Source: a virus
DNA length: 31,802 bases
IMG/VR virus record: IMGVR_UViG_3300042485_002742
Span: 1-31,802 of that record
Reading direction: 5' to 3' (one strand)
Shown here: positions 3,166 to 28,604 of the stretch, piece after piece
Numbering within the stretch: position 1 is the first letter of the stretch
Layout: every line of letters starts with the position of its first letter
The notes under the pieces: model-generated
The model's input: only the letters and a program-made list of their open reading frames with translations
The model's database searches: none
Told to the model about the DNA's origin: nothing
Position numbers and translations under genes: made by a program

Positions 3166-6100
3166 CTATGCGCTCAAATTACCAAGTTTAACACGCAGTA
3201 CATTACTTGCATCATATACCTTAATCACATTATTGTCCATTTCCATTCTAGCTCCAGTTGTTGCACTTTTAACATTAAAATTATTTCCAGTCAATGATAA
3301 ACTTCCGATTTGAGCAGAACCTATAGCAGCATCGGCAATATAAGTACTTGCATTACTTGAAGTTACTTTATCCAACGTTGCAAAAGCGCCTTGGTTTCTA
3401 ATACTAGCAGCATCAATTAAAGCATCAGCATAATCCTGTGTTACATTCTGAGGTGCAGAAGTAACAATATCAATTGCCCAGCCAGATTCCCATTGACTTC
3501 GTGCAAAGCCTGAATACCCAGCAATAAAGTCTTTAACCATTACTTTAGGAATACTCCAAGAACTTGTAGGTTCACCGATATAAATACAACATTTACCCAG
3601 TGTGGAGTCATAACCAAATCTAACTCTGTTATCCGCAGCTGTTGAACCCAGTAAATTGGCTTCTGTGTTGTACCAAGTTCCTGAGTTATAGTGGTTATAA
3701 CCTGCCAAGTTCAGACTAAAAGATTTATCTTGGCTGTAGGTATAGACATTCACCGTGAATTTCATCATCGTACTAGTGAAACCTTGCGGTAATATAATTC
3801 TAATCATGCCTGTGACAGCACCTTGATTTGAATTATAACTAGCCCCGATAGGACGAGCAACAAACAAAGTACTATTTTCTTCAATAACATTAGAAACTCT
3901 TGTGTCATTGTAGTTAGTTACATCGGCATAATCTGCTGGTTTTCCAGTGCCACCAATACTATTCCAAGCATTAGATGTCATTGGTCCGAATTTAATTTTA
4001 GAAATAGATGAATTTTCATTATGGAAACTAGAATCAAAATATAATGCAGAAGGTATTAAAACACTTACAGTTCTTTTTAATGTACCATTTTGATAATATC
4101 TAATATTAGTACCATCATAAGTGATTGATAAAATATCTCCAACTGAATATGTACCATATCCTCCTATATCATTAGCACTTTCATAAATTCTTAATGTTCC
4201 ATCTCCAGTCATATACCATGCATGATCTAATGTCTCATAACTTGCATTAGTAGCTGGGTCAGTATTTAATCCAGCCATACACCATGCAGTTGTTTGGTCA
4301 GGACTAAATGATGCATATGCTCCTAAAGTATAACTTTCTTTAGAATATGCTTGTGCATTCCATACGCCATGACCTCCACCTGTTTTCTTAATAGTATTAC
4401 CATTAACAGTCATATTTGTTACATTAAATGTTAATGTATCAAGATATGCATTATTAACTACAGTTCCAGATCCACTTGAAACACCTTGAATAGACCCATT
4501 AGTATCTACGTATGTATTATTAGCATAATCAGTGGGTTTTCCAGTTCCACTTACATCAGACCATTTTTGTTGTGCATTTAATAATGCAGCATAGCCTAGG
4601 TTATCAAATAACTTACTCTCTGTACCATCTACTATTTCAACTGTTGGATAACCAAATACTTGTGTCTCTCCTGCATTAGCACAGTAGAACTGGTAAGCAC
4701 GGGTGCCTGTATATTCAACATCACTTGCCCAACAATAATTCCATCTTTCAGCAACTAATTCACCAGTGGTCAAATCAAATATACCTGAACCAGCATTGGT
4801 ATTTCCTGTACTGCCAGCCGGAAATACATAACCAACCAATAAATACCAACGATTTGCCACAAGATCGCCTCTTCCCCCATACACAAGATAAGGATTACTG
4901 TTTTTATTACTTGTGTTTAAATCACAAACTGTATTTGCACCAATACCCCAGTAGTAACTACCAGTACTTCCTCCGGTTATTTTGACCGGAACTGCAAATC
5001 TATATGGTTTATTTTTATCAACCTTGAACCAATTTTTACCAAAAGAAGGGTCTCCTTGATTTCTATCCCAACCACCTGCTTCATTACCGTCAGCATTGGC
5101 TATGCATTTCCATACAGGAACTTTTACACCATTGACATCGGTATCATAATCAATTGCATTTTCTGCGCTAGTCCCGTTAAGAACCCAAGGCGGTGTTTGA
5201 CCAACAACCCAAGCGCCAGTTTGTAGATTATTAAGAATTAAATCATTACTAGGCTGTCCAGAGATATTAGTACCCCAAGTGGCACCTACAGTTGCATTAT
5301 TAGCTGGTTTAGTTCCACTTGGATTAGAAATATAATCCCATACTGCACCACCACTTGCCATAGTAACATTACCAGCACTATCTTTGATAGTAATACTATT
5401 AAAGTTAGCTGCTCCATCTTTGTCTATTCTCCAACCAGTATAACTTCCACCACTATTACTATAATTATCTGACTCAATAATATTTCCAATCTGTGCCATG
5501 TTTGTAATATAGGCAGTGTTAGTAGCAAGAGCATTAGTTAAAAGAGAACCAGCAATTATTTGATCTCCATCTATAAATGCTTTACCAGCATCTGCTGTGA
5601 TATTATTTGCACCTTTATATGTTGCAAGTATTCTACCACCTGCAGCAACCGCAGTACTTGAACTAGTTGTTTGTTGTAATGTAGTATTTCCAGGAATATA
5701 ATACAAGTACATTGTGTTAGTTGACCAAACATAACTACCTGCATTTACAGTCACTGGTGTAGTTTCACTATTTTTATAAACTGTAAATGAACCCCAAGAT
5801 ACAGTGTTAGTAGATTCATTGGTACTAAATTGTAAACCATTATAGGTATAAGTATCCGCGTTTAAACTAATACCAGTACCAGCACTACGTGATGTTTCTG
5901 TACCAGAACCAAAAGTATCATTAGGTGTTACAGTATAATAATAAGTTGTGCCAGCAGTACTAACAAAATCAAGATAATTATTAACTGTTGTTATAGTTTC
6001 TAATAATGTACCACCAGATGCAGCACTATATTTTTTAAATGTATAACTTACTAAATCAGTTGCACTTGGAATAGCAGCTTTTAAATAAGCACCATTGATG

Positions 6101-9100
6101 GTATTACTAATAGTCATAGTAGTACTAGGTGCTGGATTATTGAATGTTTTACTACTTGATACACTTAATCTACCCATTGCATCACGGCTAAACAATTTCA
6201 ATAAAACACTTCTACTTGGAGAACCATAATCTGCTTTATTCTGTGCAAATGAATAATCATATTGACCACCTTTTGCAACATTTGGTTGAACTATAATAGT
6301 ATTAAGTTTAGTTAATCCATTAGTTGTCCATACTTCTATAACATAATCTAATAATCTATCTGTTTTATTATCATTATTTGTATTATAATCCCAAGATAAT
6401 GGTAAGAATGGATCAGTAAAAGTAACACCAGTAGTATTTCTTACATAAAAATTACTTGGTGCTTCTAAAGTGCTACTTCTAGCACTTACTTTATAATCAA
6501 ATGTACCATAAGCTTGTAATGATCTTTTACCCATTGAATTACTAACATCAATTAATACTTCATATTGACCAGGTGTTGTATCAGGTATAATGAATTCTTT
6601 TAATGATGTAGTAGGTAATGCTTCATATTCAAGTCCATCACGTCTCCATAGACAACTAAATGTAACTGCTTCTTCAATCGCAGCACTCCAATCAAATGTA
6701 ACACGAATATAATTATTTGTATTAATACCATTATTACTAAAATGCTCGAAGAATTGAATGTTAGTTGGTTTGGCTAATATATCATTAGTTAAATTACTAT
6801 AAACAGGTGTTTCAACTACCAATCCTTGTTCAATAACACTAAATTTATTTGCATCATAGAAATTAGCAGTGAAATTATATTTTCCTTTTTCTAATTCAGA
6901 TATATTAATAATTTTAAAACTACGTGCTTCTACTAATCCATTAGAATAAACATAAAATTCTTTACTAGAATAATCACCAACTGGAATAATTGAATCAACT
7001 GTTAATGTGGTATAAGTGCCTGGTGTATTAGTAATGGTTCTTTCAATAATATCATCATTTGCTAAATTAGTCAATGCTACTTTATAAGTATATCCTGCTT
7101 GAATAACAATTGGACTATCAACATTAACAACACTTGATGTTGTATAAGAACTTGCCATTTGTCCAGCTTCTAATTGGATATTAGCAACAAATACTTCTTG
7201 GCCAGCAACATCAGAATCAAAGAATAATTGGTTTATTGTTGTTGTAGTAGGTAATGTTTTAAAATAAGCCGTTAATTTCTTCCAATTACTACCCAAATCA
7301 GTTATAGTATAATTACCACCTCTAGTTATTGAATGACTAGTAAATGGTTGACAATAAACATTACCTTCTGGCCATCCTGTATCTGAGAATTTTAAAAAAA
7401 AATCATCTACTGCGCCATTGCTACTATAATAAACACATGAAATTGAATAATAAGTATTTGGTAAAACACTTAATGATGAATTAAATAAATATTTTCTTGG
7501 ATTATCTTGACTAACACCAATTATTTTCCATCCAGTATAACCACCCATTGTGGTATCTGTAGAGACTAAATTACTACCAAATAAATTAGTAGGTGCAGTG
7601 ATAACTCTACCAGCTAGATAAGTACCAGTATTAGTAACATAATCATTATCCATGATTTTAACAACATCACCAATACCAACATCAATTGAGTTTAATGCTA
7701 GTCCAAATGAAACAATATCTTCTTGTTTGGCTTCTGTATATAATACCCATTTAGCTAATCGTTTAGCAAATGATTCTGTTACTGACCCATAAGCAGTGAA
7801 ATCTTGGACATTATAACCCCATTTTTCAATACCATTATTATAATCAACTGTATTACTTGCTCCACTAGTTGTATTAACTAAACTAATAGTACGTGGTAGA
7901 TAATGGTCATCTTTATCATTAAAAGTAATATTAACTGCTGTTATGCGTTGGCTGCTATCAGTAGTACTATAATTAAAAATACCATCAAGTACATTTGAAT
8001 TATTTAATATTTTAGTAGCAGCAGTTGGTCTATCTTGAACAATACTAATTAAATTACTATTCATACTAATATTAGCTCTCATATTACTAGCTACTGCATG
8101 TAATAATTGCCAAGCATCTTCTTGTGTTTGAATCACATTATTAAAGCAATAACGGACTTCATATCCACCCATGCCATTTGGAACTAATCCATCATTGTAA
8201 ACAGCAGCATCATAAAATGCCCATTTATCAACTGCTACTGGTGTATTCATATAATTAGCAATACCATAACGTGTATTAGTAATTAAATCATATAATATCC
8301 AAGCAGTGTTATCTGTCCATGCTGTTTTAAATAATCCATTCCAAGAACCACTATAAACTCGTGTAATTGGGTCATAGTTAACTGGTACTTGAACTTTAAT
8401 ACCCATTACATCATATGCACGATTTGGGATTTGATTACCAACGGATTCACTTGGGATACTAATTGCTGCTACTGCGCTATTATTATAAGTTTCTGTAGTA
8501 GATTGTATTTCTGTCCATCTAGCAAATTTTAAATCACTTTGGCTTGCTGTATCTGGGTCATCTGCACTTATTCTTGATACTCTAACATCCCAAGTAGCTG
8601 CTGGTGCTGTTATTCTATGAGTGAATTCATAATTACTCATGGTTTTACCAGTCAATGATTTATCAATAACAGATTGCCAAGAACCAGTTCCACCTACTGT
8701 TGAACGCACATCAATTTTATAAGCAATTGTGTTACCATTAACATCACCGTTGGTTTTATTTTGAACATATAATCCATTTGGCAATGATAAAGTAATTTTA
8801 GCAAAGTCAACGCCACTGGTGGTGATTGATTGAATAACAGGAGTTGATGCAGTTACAGTAACATCTTTTTGAAATTCTGATTCTGCATCTGGGAACCAGT
8901 TGATTTTTTCTTGACTAGGTAATCCATTACGTGAATCAAACACAACATTAGTGAAATTATAGGTATTATCAGTATTTTGTAATGGTGTATTATTAATATA
9001 AACACCTTTTGGTCCACCTACTATACCTTCAATTTCACCTTCTGAAATTACTTCAAGAACACGTGCAATCGCTGCACTACGAAGAGTGTCAGCTGCTTCT

Positions 9101-9642
9101 GTTGCAACATGTGGTGTGCCACCTTTACCACCACCACCATTATGGACTTTAAACCAATCAATACCATCACTTGATACCAAATAAGTATGCATTGGTAATA
9201 CTTCAAGATTATATACAGTGAAATCAGCACTATATTCTTCTTTTGGTTGAATACTAATTTCATCAATAATAACTTGACTACCATCCATTAATGTGAATGA
9301 TTCATTAATATTAAAATCTTGTGCTTCTTTATGTTCATTAGTGATATTATCATAGATAGCATGATTACCTGTAACTAATGGCATCCCATTATGGAAATCA
9401 TATAAATCATGAGAAATATCACTACCAATATGTTTAAAAACTTGTTTAATAATACCAAACTCTAATTCACCAAATCTATCATAACCAATAATAATATCAT
9501 TGGGTTTTAATGTTTCAATTGGTGTATAACCATGCTGAGTTCTAACAAAGGTTCCAGCTGGGAAACAACTACCACTACCACTGATTCCATCATTAATAAC
9601 TTCTTCAATTGGTTCTAAATGATTTGCTGAATAATATTTCAT
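3166..9642 (-). CDS. J: Tail-tip host-specificity protein J with N-terminal intein-like Hint domain
   Basis: 2158 residues, about twice the length of lambda gpJ (1132). Residues 1-25 are a short leader, and residues 26-168 form a Hint domain (separate entry). From residue 169 the protein matches the start of lambda J: a Gly/Lys-rich segment, then 'VISEGEIEGIVGG' (lambda 'AISEGPIEGPVDG'). Further lambda-like landmarks are 'VPVNYDPITRVYSGSWNG' and 'DKWAFYDAAVYND'. Later parts include a jelly-roll-like insertion at about 695-835 ending in 'IQLEAGQMASSYTTS', fibronectin-III-like repeats at about 950-1200, a second jelly-roll-like part at about 1475-1680, a SPRY/concanavalin-like domain at about 1710-1890 and a phage fibre module at about 1930-2070. 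AAGGAAG precedes the ATG. It forms the central tail-tip hub and binds the host receptor. The extra sugar-binding-like domains suggest surface glycan recognition. Confidence 0.92.
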   Translation of the reverse strand: MKYYSANHLEPIEEVINDGISGSGSCFPAGTFVRTQHGYTPIETLKPNDIIIGYDRFGELEFGIIKQVFKHIGSDISHDLYDFHNGMPLVTGNHAIYDNITNEHKEAQDFNINESFTLMDGSQVIIDEISIQPKEEYSADFTVYNLEVLPMHTYLVSSDGIDWFKVHNGGGGKGGTPHVATEAADTLRSAAIARVLEVISEGEIEGIVGGPKGVYINNTPLQNTDNTYNFTNVVFDSRNGLPSQEKINWFPDAESEFQKDVTVTASTPVIQSITTSGVDFAKITLSLPNGLYVQNKTNGDVNGNTIAYKIDVRSTVGGTGSWQSVIDKSLTGKTMSNYEFTHRITAPAATWDVRVSRISADDPDTASQSDLKFARWTEIQSTTETYNNSAVAAISIPSESVGNQIPNRAYDVMGIKVQVPVNYDPITRVYSGSWNGLFKTAWTDNTAWILYDLITNTRYGIANYMNTPVAVDKWAFYDAAVYNDGLVPNGMGGYEVRYCFNNVIQTQEDAWQLLHAVASNMRANISMNSNLISIVQDRPTAATKILNNSNVLDGIFNYSTTDSSQRITAVNITFNDKDDHYLPRTISLVNTTSGASNTVDYNNGIEKWGYNVQDFTAYGSVTESFAKRLAKWVLYTEAKQEDIVSFGLALNSIDVGIGDVVKIMDNDYVTNTGTYLAGRVITAPTNLFGSNLVSTDTTMGGYTGWKIIGVSQDNPRKYLFNSSLSVLPNTYYSISCVYYSSNGAVDDFFLKFSDTGWPEGNVYCQPFTSHSITRGGNYTITDLGSNWKKLTAYFKTLPTTTTINQLFFDSDVAGQEVFVANIQLEAGQMASSYTTSSVVNVDSPIVIQAGYTYKVALTNLANDDIIERTITNTPGTYTTLTVDSIIPVGDYSSKEFYVYSNGLVEARSFKIINISELEKGKYNFTANFYDANKFSVIEQGLVVETPVYSNLTNDILAKPTNIQFFEHFSNNGINTNNYIRVTFDWSAAIEEAVTFSCLWRRDGLEYEALPTTSLKEFIIPDTTPGQYEVLIDVSNSMGKRSLQAYGTFDYKVSARSSTLEAPSNFYVRNTTGVTFTDPFLPLSWDYNTNNDNKTDRLLDYVIEVWTTNGLTKLNTIIVQPNVAKGGQYDYSFAQNKADYGSPSRSVLLKLFSRDAMGRLSVSSSKTFNNPAPSTTMTISNTINGAYLKAAIPSATDLVSYTFKKYSAASGGTLLETITTVNNYLDFVSTAGTTYYYTVTPNDTFGSGTETSRSAGTGISLNADTYTYNGLQFSTNESTNTVSWGSFTVYKNSETTPVTVNAGSYVWSTNTMYLYYIPGNTTLQQTTSSSTAVAAGGRILATYKGANNITADAGKAFIDGDQIIAGSLLTNALATNTAYITNMAQIGNIIESDNYSNSGGSYTGWRIDKDGAANFNSITIKDSAGNVTMASGGAVWDYISNPSGTKPANNATVGATWGTNISGQPSNDLILNNLQTGAWVVGQTPPWVLNGTSAENAIDYDTDVNGVKVPVWKCIANADGNEAGGWDRNQGDPSFGKNWFKVDKNKPYRFAVPVKITGGSTGSYYWGIGANTVCDLNTSNKNSNPYLVYGGRGDLVANRWYLLVGYVFPAGSTGNTNAGSGIFDLTTGELVAERWNYCWASDVEYTGTRAYQFYCANAGETQVFGYPTVEIVDGTESKLFDNLGYAALLNAQQKWSDVSGTGKPTDYANNTYVDTNGSIQGVSSGSGTVVNNAYLDTLTFNVTNMTVNGNTIKKTGGGHGVWNAQAYSKESYTLGAYASFSPDQTTAWCMAGLNTDPATNASYETLDHAWYMTGDGTLRIYESANDIGGYGTYSVGDILSITYDGTNIRYYQNGTLKRTVSVLIPSALYFDSSFHNENSSISKIKFGPMTSNAWNSIGGTGKPADYADVTNYNDTRVSNVIEENSTLFVARPIGASYNSNQGAVTGMIRIILPQGFTSTMMKFTVNVYTYSQDKSFSLNLAGYNHYNSGTWYNTEANLLGSTAADNRVRFGYDSTLGKCCIYIGEPTSSWSIPKVMVKDFIAGYSGFARSQWESGWAIDIVTSAPQNVTQDYADALIDAASIRNQGAFATLDKVTSSNASTYIADAAIGSAQIGSLSLTGNNFNVKSATTGARMEMDNNVIKVYDASNVLRVKLGNLSA
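9139..9567 (-). other. Hint (bacterial-intein-like) domain inside J
   Basis: J residues 26-168 (about 143). Block A starts at Cys26 ('CFPAGTFVRTQHGYTPIE'). Block B is 'VTGNHAIYD' with the TxxH pair Thr91/His94. Block F is 'VYNLEVLPMHTYLV'. The domain ends 'VHN' at His167-Asn168. These are the N-S acyl shift and Asn-cyclisation residues of inteins. The residue after Asn168 is Gly, not Cys/Ser/Thr, so canonical splicing is unlikely; cleavage as in bacterial intein-like domains is expected. The size leaves no room for a homing nuclease. The lambda-J-like sequence begins right after the Asn. Confidence 0.9.
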
Positions 9643-26043: not shown

Positions 26044-26183
26044 AGCAGGTAAACCTGCTATGGTCTCGCTATCGCTCTATGTTCGCTATCGCTCACATAT
26101 TCACGATACCTCACCCATGTTTTTTTATTTTCTTTTTTATTTTTTAAGAAACACATATGAGATACATGAGATACATGAGATAT
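26044..26183. repeat. Hairpin and short tandem repeats in a gene-free stretch
   Basis: AGCAGGT-AA-ACCTGCT (26044-26059) is a perfect 7-bp hairpin. TCGCTATCGCTC occurs twice (26066-26077 and 26083-26094). ATGAGATA[CT] occurs three times in tandem (26157-26183). No convincing gene lies between 25994 and 26268. A small plus-strand frame at 26300 (22 codons, AAGGAAA upstream) overlaps the RNA candidate and is unsupported. Confidence 0.6.
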
Positions 26184-26267
26184 ATGATTGATTATCTATT
26201 ATAAACAACTCATCAGGAGAGATGGATTATACAGAGTGGTATTATGCCCCCATAAAAATGGGAGCAT

Positions 26268-26722
26268 AAAAAAATATCAGTATTCGAAGGAAATACGTCA
26301 TGAGTAGAGTTACACTGATTACAGAGGCGGTTGGCCGATTACCTCGAAGTGCGTTTATGTTTCATTGAAAATATAACTTTGATCGCTACAAGTGATGCTT
26401 ATTGCACCCACGTCATTGTCTTATTTTCAAATATGTCCAACGGTGGCATTAGGAAAATACTCTACCATATTCCTAATACGTCTGGGAATTACCCAGTCTT
26501 TAGCCTTTTTTCATTTATTCAAATTTTCGAAATTGGTTGTACTGAAGGCGTATCCAATCATCATCCACAACACTAGGTGTGGGTAGTCGAAAAAGTCACT
26601 GCTTCTGCTCAGTTGTTGCGCTCAATGCGAAGAACATTCCATTGCCAACGGCACCTATCAAACCACCGGTGCGAGTGTATCAGAAGTTTTATTGCCTTAA
26701 TTTTGCCTGTCTATTGCCTAAT
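26268..26722 (-). ncRNA. Candidate ~455-nt structured RNA
   Basis: A perfect sigma70 promoter (26729-26757) reads into a gene-free stretch with many local inverted repeats. Pairs seen are GCACC/GGTGC (26651/26668), GTTG-CAATG/CATTG-CAAC (26615-26649), CTGGG/CCCAG (26482-26496), ATTAGGAA/TTCCTAAT (26448-26477), AATTT/AAATT (near 26522), and GAGG-CGG/CCG-CCTC (26324-26345). It ends with ATCAGT/ACTGAT (26313-26318 with 26275-26280) and a T run at 26268-26274, terminator-like. Open frames on both strands are short and overlap each other, with no family match and no ribosome binding site. The 5' end is inferred from the promoter. It does not show tmRNA, RNase P or group I intron signatures that I recognise. 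A degenerate host gene remnant is the main alternative, because 26511-26621 (minus) reads as a protein-like fragment. Confidence 0.45.
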
Positions 26723-26728
26723 CTTTGT

Positions 26729-26757
26729 ATTATACTAAATGTATTTATCACTGTCAA
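26729..26757 (-). promoter_or_regulatory. Perfect consensus sigma70 promoter driving the RNA candidate
   Basis: TTGACA (26752-26757), exactly 17 bp, TATAAT (26729-26734) on the minus strand; predicted start near 26722. A GATAAATA box (26742-26749) lies inside the spacer. No gene with a recognisable product lies downstream. Confidence 0.85.
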
Positions 26758-26804: not shown

Positions 26805-26944
26805 CATCTTTTCCCGAGATGCTTCTGGCTGCGGGAAACAACCAGAAGAAGTTGAAAAGGAAACTTTCGTAATCAAGTCATGTTGCATCACTTGATACAT
26901 TTATTTATCATTTGTTGGTGAACTAACTCGCCCTAAAGGACGAG
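26805..26944 (-). other. Row of five hairpins at and beyond the 3' end of tnpB
   Basis: Consecutive stems: CATCT/AGATG (26805-26821), CTTCTGG/CCAGAAG (26822-26848), AAGTT/AACTT (26849-26866), TCAAGT/ACTTGA (26873-26895), and CTCG-CC/GG-CGAG (26927-26944). The last overlaps the tnpB stop and resembles the right-end hairpin of IS200/IS605 elements, where the omega RNA scaffold ends. The other four follow almost without gaps. Another GATAAATA box lies at 26902-26909. Tnp-associated guide RNA or phage regulatory RNA is inferred. Confidence 0.5.
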
Positions 26945-28114
26945 GCTTCCTGATTCATTGATACCTAGTAATTGACCAATCATTACTAATTGATCATACC
27001 GGGGATCTCCACAGGCATTAAGTCGGGCAGTTCCTGCCCTATCAATATTAATCGCGGCATTTAAGTCGCGATCTATTACTTCTCCACATGACTTGCAGTC
27101 ATATGTTCTACTTGATAACTCGATGTCTTGTATACTACCACAGTTTGAACAAGTCTTACTAGACGGGTAATAGCGGTCAATTATTACCGTTTTACCACCG
27201 TATAATTCAGACTTGTATTCGATAAACTGCCGAAGCATAGCAAATCCGTTATCTTTGATAATATGGCCATTCCATTGCTGTATTGATTTGACATTTAAAT
27301 CTTCCAATGAAATCACATCATAATCATCGACAAGCTGACGAGAAAGTTTATGAAAGTAATCTAATCGTTTTAGTTTAACACGATAATTCGCTTTAGTCAA
27401 CTTCAATTGAGCTTTTAAGTAATTATGACTACCTTTTTTCTTACGAGATAGCCCTCGTTGTAATTTCTTAATTTTCGCTTGGTTTTCACGAAGAAATTTA
27501 GGAATTACATAACGAATGCCATTACTTAATACGTATTCAGATGAATTCAGGTCAATACCAACTGAATTAGTAGTAGTAGTTCTCGTAGGTAATTTTGGTT
27601 TTGTACATGTAACTACAACAAACCAATTATGGGCTTCTTGTTTTATTTGACATGTCTTGAAATCACTAGGTAATGCCCTATGATAACGGCATTTAATCCA
27701 TCCGATATTAGGTATTTTAAATTTACCTGAATTGAAATCACAGTTTCTATCAGAATTGACCATAGCTAGGGTGAAGGATCCGTTAAAGTTTCGTTTTTTC
27801 TTAAACTTTGGAAATCCTTTAGTAGCTTTAGAATTCTTTTTAAAACTAGCTTTCAATGCCACATCAAGATAGCGGATAGTTTGTTGTAAGCTCGTTGATG
27901 GTGAAGATTGCAACCATTCAGTAGCTTTTTTCAAACTGGTTAAATCTGCACTGTTTTTATTGAAAAACCTGAACTTGTTATCGATCTGGTATTGTTGCAT
28001 TTCTTGATTTAAGAAATGATTCCAGACATAGCGATTGTTACCAACTACTTGGTTTAATAATTGGATCTGTTCCTGTGATGGGTACAATCGATATTTATAT
28101 TTCAGGTTTTGCAT
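26933..28114 (-). CDS. tnpB: TnpB RNA-guided endonuclease
   Basis: 393 residues, normal length. An N-terminal OrfB helix-turn-helix part ('YKYRLYPSQEQIQLLNQVVG') precedes the wedge region. The RuvC-like catalytic residues are all present: Asp188 ('VGIDLNSS'), Glu271 ('ISLEDLNV') and Asp350 ('DRDLNAAINI'). The zinc ribbon has Cys322/Cys325 and Cys340/Cys343 ('CSNCG', 'CKSCG'). The C-terminus is short. TnpB cuts DNA next to a short 5' motif, directed by an omega RNA made from the 3' end of its own gene and the flanking DNA. The predicted promoter at 28223-28251 gives a leader of about 100 nt. There is no clear Shine-Dalgarno before the ATG. Intact residues argue against a TldR-type repressor. 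Confidence 0.93.
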   Translation of the reverse strand: MQNLKYKYRLYPSQEQIQLLNQVVGNNRYVWNHFLNQEMQQYQIDNKFRFFNKNSADLTSLKKATEWLQSSPSTSLQQTIRYLDVALKASFKKNSKATKGFPKFKKKRNFNGSFTLAMVNSDRNCDFNSGKFKIPNIGWIKCRYHRALPSDFKTCQIKQEAHNWFVVVTCTKPKLPTRTTTTNSVGIDLNSSEYVLSNGIRYVIPKFLRENQAKIKKLQRGLSRKKKGSHNYLKAQLKLTKANYRVKLKRLDYFHKLSRQLVDDYDVISLEDLNVKSIQQWNGHIIKDNGFAMLRQFIEYKSELYGGKTVIIDRYYPSSKTCSNCGSIQDIELSSRTYDCKSCGEVIDRDLNAAINIDRAGTARLNACGDPRYDQLVMIGQLLGINESGSLVL

Positions 28115-28135: not shown

Positions 28136-28164
28136 TTGACATGATTAAATTTTGGGTATATAAT
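28136..28164 (+). promoter_or_regulatory. Perfect consensus sigma70 promoter reading out of tnpB left end
   Basis: TTGACA (28136-28141), exactly 17 bp, TATAAT (28159-28164) on the plus strand, start near 28171. It points away from tnpB, through the left-end hairpin, and faces the tnpB promoter. The nearest plus-strand gene is at 29098. Confidence 0.82.
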
Positions 28165-28222: not shown

Positions 28223-28251
28223 ATTATAACAGATGACAAAAAATTTGTCAA
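28223..28251 (-). promoter_or_regulatory. Perfect consensus sigma70 promoter of tnpB
   Basis: TTGACA (28246-28251), exactly 17 bp, TATAAT (28223-28228) on the minus strand; predicted start near 28216, 100 nt upstream of the tnpB ATG. The spacer holds part of a 7-bp inverted repeat TGACAAA/TTTGTCA (28234-28250), a possible operator. Confidence 0.85.
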
Positions 28252-28330: not shown

Positions 28331-28370
28331 TACATAAGGAAGGAAGGAAGTACATCTATGTACTATTAGT

Positions 28371-28604
28371 GTGTAGCGGTTTTGTGTAAAATGGCTGCAG
28401 CCCAGTAAAATCAACAGTGTGTAGCGGTTTTTAGATGTGTAGCGGTTTTTAGATGTGTAGCGGTTTTTAGATGTGTAGCGGTTTTTAGATGTGTAGCGGT
28501 TTTGTGTAAAATGGCTGCAGCCCAGTAAAATCAACAGTGTGTAGCGGTTTTGTGTAAAATGGCTGCAGCCCAGTAAAATCAACAGTGTGTAGCGGTTTTT
28601 GGTA
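28371..28604. repeat. Eight-copy tandem repeat with 48-bp and 18-bp periods
   Basis: The core GTGTAGCGGTTTT starts at 28371, 28419, 28437, 28455, 28473, 28491, 28539 and 28587: spacings 48, 18, 18, 18, 18, 48, 48. The 18-bp unit is GTGTAGCGGTTTTTAGAT. The 48-bp unit adds an insert containing the palindrome GGCTGCAGCC flanked by GTAAAA on both sides. Copies are identical, so this is not a CRISPR array. Because all periods are multiples of three, long shadow frames cross it. No gene is credible in 28115-28655. Confidence 0.92.

What the first reader, a model, noticed from the sequence alone, without database searches (positions are those of the whole stretch)
26268..26757. Promoter-driven ~455-nt structured RNA candidate downstream of tnpB
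A perfect TTGACA-N17-TATAAT promoter reads into a gene-free region with at least six clear hairpins and a terminator-like end (ATCAGT/ACTGAT plus T7). No ORF has both a ribosome binding site and a recognisable product. The size and density of stems recall large ornate phage RNAs, but I recognise no known signature. An alternative is a decayed host gene, since 26511-26621 (minus) reads as a hydrophobic protein-like fragment.
Basis: partly seen in the sequence, partly recalled or inferred. Interest (0 to 1): 0.68.

Follow-up and report, generated by a model that had tools for sequence, protein, structure and literature searches.

The report
Large phage RNA extending Polynucleobacter-1
The region encodes a large, strongly folded RNA made by phages; only its first third was catalogued before (as the orphan "Polynucleobacter-1" RNA), and relatives in more than 100 uncultured phage contigs show that the whole molecule is conserved, knotted and of unknown function.

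Summary
The minus-strand promoter (26757..26729) is perfect and the region encodes no protein. Conservation runs far beyond the 141-nt Rfam model. Motif scans gave 145 related loci (57 non-redundant, window included) in six sequence families, three without Rfam match. All share a 3' domain: a long hairpin whose loop pairs with a strand downstream (pseudoknot in 41 of 42 loci tested, 25 different sequence pairs, 4.5% expected), plus GGUA-nCGGCCAACCG-CC or a B-type variant of it. Covariation is strong. In 53 of 57 loci the RNA lies in a T4-like phage locus, between gp55/gp47/gp46/nuclease genes and gp26/portal genes. The window is an exception: a siphophage copy with its own consensus promoter and a compensatory change in the pseudoknot. 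The "T7 terminator" is internal; conserved elements continue to about 26044. tnpB is incidental. Single-sequence folding energy is no better than shuffles. Most likely this is a trans-acting large phage RNA, comparable in kind to GOLLD and ROOL but not homologous. Function is inferred, not shown.

The parts
26729..26757 (-). sigma-70 consensus promoter TTGACA-N17-TATAAT
   Evidence: 12/12; nearest relative L070 has an 11/12 promoter upstream of its RNA; most T4-like copies have none and start just behind an upstream gene
26686..26722 (-). predicted RNA 5' leader with repeated AGGCA boxes, conserved in subtype A
   Evidence: alignment of subtype A; start of transcription inferred from the promoter
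26521..26677 (-). RF01718 Polynucleobacter-1 RNA (5' domain), full model 1-141
   Evidence: cmscan 63.3 bits, GA 37, E 2.1e-11
26651..26672 (-). hairpin P1 GCACC...GGTGC
   Evidence: conserved in subtypes A and C
26588..26594 (-). 5' strand of core closing stem UUUUUCG, pairs with 26529..26523 CGAAAAU
   Evidence: covaries: GATATA/TATATC (L008), TTACTG/CGGTAA (L007), CATTCG/CGAATG (L070)
26523..26529 (-). 3' strand of core closing stem CGAAAAU
   Evidence: as above
26480..26498 (-). hairpin GACTGGGTAATTCCCAGAC
   Evidence: L010 and L070 have compensatory CCAGG/CCTGG
26446..26479 (-). long hairpin H2 whose loop carries pseudoknot strand PK5
   Evidence: equivalent helix in subtype B: all 7 pairs change on both sides;
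26459..26465 (-). pseudoknot strand PK5 GUAGAGU
   Evidence: pairs with 26310..26304; 41 of 42 nr loci keep at least 6 Watson-Crick pairs here
26304..26310 (-). pseudoknot strand PK3 ACUCUAC
   Evidence: window and L070 share the compensatory version
26437..26441 (-). GUUGG, 5' strand of second pseudoknot helix PK2, pairs with 26334..26330 CCAAC
   Evidence: invariant in A, C and D; in B it covaries, GUCA/UGAC with GUUA/UAAC
26357..26435 (-). linker with about 65-70 nt of extra, hairpin-forming sequence found only in the window copy
   Evidence: alignments
26313..26353 (-). 3' core GCACU-UC-GAGG-UA-nCGGCCAACCG-CCUC-UGUAAUC-AGUG
   Evidence: motif shared by subtypes A, C, D1, D2 and E; stem pairs covary
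   Evidence: followed by a conserved hairpin in relatives
26244..26267 (-). conserved terminal hairpin AUGCUCCC...GGGGGCAU
26066..26094 (-). two copies of GAGCGAUAGCGA, the first in a short hairpin loop
   Evidence: only two such sites in the window (0.04 expected); found behind 8/8 A and 12/12 C RNAs, 5% of control stretches
26044..26059 (-). hairpin AGCAGGTTTACCTGCT, likely 3' boundary of the module
   Evidence: a hairpin follows GAGCGAUAGCGA in subtypes A, B, C and D2; boundary inferred

Best explanation
The site is a gene for a stand-alone, trans-acting phage RNA, transcribed from about 26722 (-) to at least 26244 and probably to about 26044 (roughly 480-680 nt). Rfam Polynucleobacter-1 is its 5' domain. 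The 3' domain folds into a pseudoknotted core followed by a terminal hairpin, which in most relatives is flanked by two identical short sequences. Shown here: homology, extent, conserved fold, genomic placement. Inferred: that it is expressed during infection and acts in trans as a structural or recognition RNA (possibly with a nucleic-acid partner read by the twin repeats), working like other large ornate phage RNAs such as GOLLD and ROOL rather than as a leader or a coding remnant.
For: RF01718 hit. Full-length homologs. Strong covariation with controls (95.6-99% of cells paired against 28-57% when slid; 0/500 shuffles reach the covariation score). Pseudoknot in 41/42 nr loci against 4.5% expected. 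53/57 nr loci in a T4-like locus, where the next gene is mostly convergent, so the RNA is not its leader. In a new context (window, L070) it has a consensus or near-consensus promoter, and the 3' GAGCGAUAGCGA element travels with it. Copies also sit among ordinary chromosomal genes of Methylococcaceae.
Against: No expression data. No isolate phage record carries it (blastn), so no genetics exists. In most T4-like copies the RNA starts a few nt after a nuclease gene without a clear promoter, which would also fit a 3' UTR role. The window copy lacks recognisable twin repeats and has an insertion, so it may be partly degenerate.
Confidence: 0.72

Rival explanations
1. It is a cis-acting element: a leader of the downstream genes (HNH, then terminase and late genes in the window), or a 3' UTR stabiliser or terminator of the gp46/nuclease operon.
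For: Weinberg 2010 rated Polynucleobacter-1 as probably cis-regulatory (PMC2864571). In most T4-like copies the RNA follows a nuclease gene directly. In the window it precedes the packaging and structural genes.
Against: In most loci the next gene is convergent (gp26-like on the other strand). In D1 phages RNA and nuclease gene are flipped, so the RNA precedes it instead of following it. Neighbours in the window, L070 and bacterial chromosomes are unrelated, yet the fold is kept.
Confidence: 0.2
2. It is the guide (omega) RNA of the adjacent TnpB.
For: Same strand, 175 nt downstream of tnpB (26933-28114, -; Pfam OrfB_IS605 and Cas12f1-like_TNB).
Against: No other locus has tnpB within 5 kb (the tnpB cluster has one member). 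The RNA has its own promoter.
Confidence: 0.02
3. It is a decayed protein gene.
For: ORFs of 53-81 aa exist on the plus strand of the region.
Against: Relatives show indels and compensatory base changes incompatible with a frame; covariation in several helices; Rfam hit.
Confidence: 0.01
4. It is a self-splicing intron or ribozyme remnant with its homing endonuclease.
For: HNH gene downstream in the window; homing-type GIY-YIG gene upstream in many T4-like copies.
Against: No group I or II intron match at E<=1 in the 801-nt region. It lies between whole genes, not inside one. Nuclease neighbours differ between families (GIY-YIG, PD-(D/E)XK, HNH).
Confidence: 0.05

Closest known systems
Polynucleobacter-1 RNA (Rfam RF01718; Weinberg et al. 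2010, PMC2864571)
   Same: The 5' domain 26677..26521 matches the full 141-nt model above the curated cut-off; other matches come from uncultured phages.
   Different: The RNA is 3-4 times longer. The 3' pseudoknotted domain, terminal hairpin and repeats are not in the model. Three subfamilies that share the 3' motif do not match the model.
GOLLD and ROOL RNAs
   Same: Large, pseudoknotted, phage-borne RNAs without known function; [quoted passage not shown] L070 carries our RNA next to a cluster of 13 tRNA genes.
   Different: No Rfam match to either at E<=1. Different length. Oligomerisation untested.
T4-like phage gp46/gp47 region
   Same: The locus with gp55, gp47, gp46, a nuclease gene, then gp26-like and portal genes.
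   Different: No matching RNA was found in isolated phages held here (DNA-level search only).

Membership tests
Polynucleobacter-1 (RF01718) | covariance-model score above gathering cut-off, full model | tested here: met
   63.3 bits against 37, positions 1-141 of 141
Polynucleobacter-1 (RF01718) | RNA limited to the 141-nt motif | tested here: not met
   conserved structure continues for at least 250 nt 3' of the motif, in the classical subtype B as well
Polynucleobacter-1 (RF01718) | cis-regulatory element (2010 rating) | tested here: inconclusive
   next gene is convergent in most loci, which argues against a leader; no expression data
GOLLD | match to the Rfam model | tested here: not met
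   no hit at E<=1
ROOL | match to the Rfam model | tested here: not met
   no hit at E<=1
GOLLD / ROOL | homo-oligomeric nanocage | not testable with these tools
   needs cryo-EM or native gels
TnpB omega RNA | linked to tnpB across relatives | tested here: not met
   tnpB only in the window
Group I / II intron | match to intron models | tested here: not met
   no hit at E<=1

The most novel reading that the evidence does not exclude
A superfamily of large pseudoknotted phage RNAs, conserved at one locus of T4-like phages and moving to other phages and to bacterial chromosomes, acts in trans by presenting two identical, fast-changing recognition sequences around a hairpin to one nucleic-acid partner that co-evolves with them. 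RF01718 is only its 5' domain and several subfamilies are undescribed.
Probability: 0.35. Interest if true: 0.82.

Novelty: new variant of a known kind. Interest (0 to 1): 0.64.

Why it matters
An orphan motif from 2010 turns out to be a fragment of a large, widespread phage RNA with a well-supported long-range pseudoknot. Its fixed locus in T4-like phages, its presence in a siphophage behind a consensus promoter, and its three families without Rfam match give concrete handles (consensus fold, boundaries, repeats) for tests of what large phage RNAs do.

Tried and rejected
Single-sequence folding energy: z = +0.5, no support. Terminator at T7: not conserved. Link to tnpB: only in the window. 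Decayed gene: rejected. Intramolecular partner for the twin repeats: no consistent one found with 6-mers and at most one G-U. Enrichment of the repeat or its complement in the flanking phage DNA: none (complement 47 seen, 50 expected). Relatives among 50,697 isolate phage records by blastn: none for nine query RNAs. MAFFT of A, C and D1 together shifts the D1 pseudoknot by one column on each side, so the families were counted apart. Nineteen loci found with the 17-base motif look like chance matches (mostly coding) and were left out. One early pseudoknot scan mis-anchored many B sequences; one search repeats it with fixed anchors.

Full report
WHAT IS THERE. On the minus strand a perfect TTGACA-N17-TATAAT promoter lies at 26757..26729. 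cmscan against Rfam 15 gives one hit in the whole 31.8-kb window: RF01718, Polynucleobacter-1, at 26677..26521 (-), 63.3 bits against a cut-off of 37, complete model (the only hit above its cut-off in the 801-nt region at E<=1). The literature held here mentions this family only once, in its 2010 discovery table (PMC2864571), with 'y' for RNA, 'y' for cis-regulatory and '?' for switch.

EXTENT. A pattern from the RF01718 core found 12 IMG/VR contigs and 3 Methylococcales MAG contigs, all confirmed by Rfam. Their alignment with the window stays conserved far past the core, well outside the Rfam model, through a GCTCCC..GGGGGC hairpin and (in relatives) a GTAATCTAGATGAA box. Further scans brought the set to 145 loci by 3' motif after removal of chance matches. 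Clustering of the 139 that are long enough gave 57 non-redundant RNAs in six sequence families (the window clusters apart because of its insertion but is type A, 86-93% identical over about 270 nt): A (window, methanotroph MAGs), B (classical Polynucleobacter-1), C, D1, D2 and E. C carries the RF01718 5' domain together with the A-type 3' motif, which ties both halves to one molecule. D1, D2 and E have the 3' motif but no RF01718 match. The RNA regions of D1 and D2 have no match even at E<=1, apart from an unrelated lncRNA model at E 0.86. Counts are lower bounds, since the scans ask for exact motifs.

FOLD. The window's single-sequence energy is no better than shuffles; the evidence is comparative. 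In subtype B (24 sequences) hairpin H2, its loop pseudoknot, PK2 and the GG-stem form 95.6% standard pairs; sliding the partners gives 30-46%, and 0/500 shuffles reach the covariation score. Fourteen of fifteen pairs of H2 and the loop pseudoknot change on both sides in some sequence. Subtypes A+C with the window included (99.0%) and D1 (98.9%) agree. Across families 41 of 42 non-redundant loci have at least 6 Watson-Crick pairs between loop and downstream strand, in 25 different sequence pairs, against 4.5% in shuffles and 4.3% when partners are swapped between families. Six C members with a longer spacer have 8 pairs, one of them a compensatory variant. The D2 and E families were not included in that count; D2 shows weaker or shifted pairing. 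The window has GUAGAGU/ACUCUAC where most A members have CUAGAGU/ACUCUAG, a compensatory change shared with its nearest relative L070. So the window copy keeps the fold despite 65-70 nt of extra sequence in a linker.

3' END. The window has exactly two GAGCGATAGCGA sites, both directly downstream (26066-26094; 0.04 expected). The same element follows 8/8 A and 12/12 C RNAs (and some B and D2) but only 5% of control stretches, often in a hairpin loop with varying stem and followed by another hairpin. I therefore place the 3' boundary of the module near 26044. This boundary is inferred.

TWIN REPEATS. In most relatives the last hairpin is flanked by two direct repeats, [ACUC]-X and [AUCU]-X, whose X is the same within an RNA and different between RNAs: AGATGAA, AGTTGAA, AAATGAG within A; GGATGAA, GCATAAT, ACATAAT, AGATAAT, GGATAAT within C; ATGAAGAG, ACGAAGAG in E; GGTCAAGT, GTGTCAAGT in B. 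A single such repeat is weak evidence: a free search finds a 7-mer repeat in 20% of shuffles, against 47 of 57 loci, with relatedness not removed and some hits not being R1/R2. The concerted changes at a fixed position are the stronger point. I found no consistent partner inside the RNA and no enrichment near it. The window lacks recognisable repeats. This remains unexplained.

CONTEXT. In 53 of 57 non-redundant loci the neighbours are T4-like: gp55-like late sigma factor, SbcD/gp47, SbcC/gp46, then a GIY-YIG (SegE-like) or PD-(D/E)XK nuclease, the RNA, then a gp26-like baseplate gene on the other strand and tail/portal genes. In most of these the RNA starts close behind the upstream stop codon without a clear promoter; the window (12/12), L134 (12/12) and L070 (11/12) have strong promoters. 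The window is a siphophage (terminase 39% identical to that of Salmonella phage LSPA1 and similar phages, tape measure and lambda-like tail genes). RF01718 occurs in 6 of 237 Methylococcaceae genomes, on three long contigs among ordinary chromosomal genes beside a small conserved gene. No isolate phage record matched.

HOW IT PROBABLY WORKS. A promoter of its own in new contexts, conservation of a compact knotted fold, and indifference to neighbours speak for a trans-acting structural or recognition RNA. That it is expressed, that it acts in trans and that the repeats contact a partner are inferences. GOLLD and ROOL are the closest in kind (PMC12286853), but no homology was found, so it is not filed as a member of either.

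Noticed in passing
L178, L183, L186, L188 (Methylococcaceae genomes): The RNA sits beside a conserved, divergently transcribed small gene starting MRINELL/MKIQELL, without Pfam match; downstream genes of subtype A phages also start MKIxEII-like, which recalls capsid-targeting N-termini of T4 internal head proteins (from memory, not tested).
   Followed up: partly
L070 (IMGVR_UViG_3300042317_001647): The nearest relative of the window RNA lies in a 10-kb phage stretch with 13 predicted tRNA genes.
   Followed up: no
window 28360-28600: Repeats of GTGTAGCGGTTTTTAGAT and GTGTAAAATGGCTGCAGCCCAGTAAAATCAACA upstream of tnpB; nature unknown.
   Followed up: no
window 28136-28164 (+) and 28223-28251 (-): Two further perfect sigma-70 consensus promoters that face each other, upstream of tnpB.
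   Followed up: no
window 3166-9642 (-): The 2158-aa tail protein begins with a Hint/intein-like segment (GSGSCFPAGTFVRTQHGYTPIETLKPNDII...VHNGGGG), read by eye.
   Followed up: no
all RNA families, around the 3' hairpin: Concerted change of the two direct repeats that flank the terminal hairpin; partner unknown.
   Followed up: partly
G092:C45 (L184, L186): A chromosomal copy with a full RF01718 hit (64.4 bits) but no recognisable 3' motif within two mismatches.
   Followed up: no
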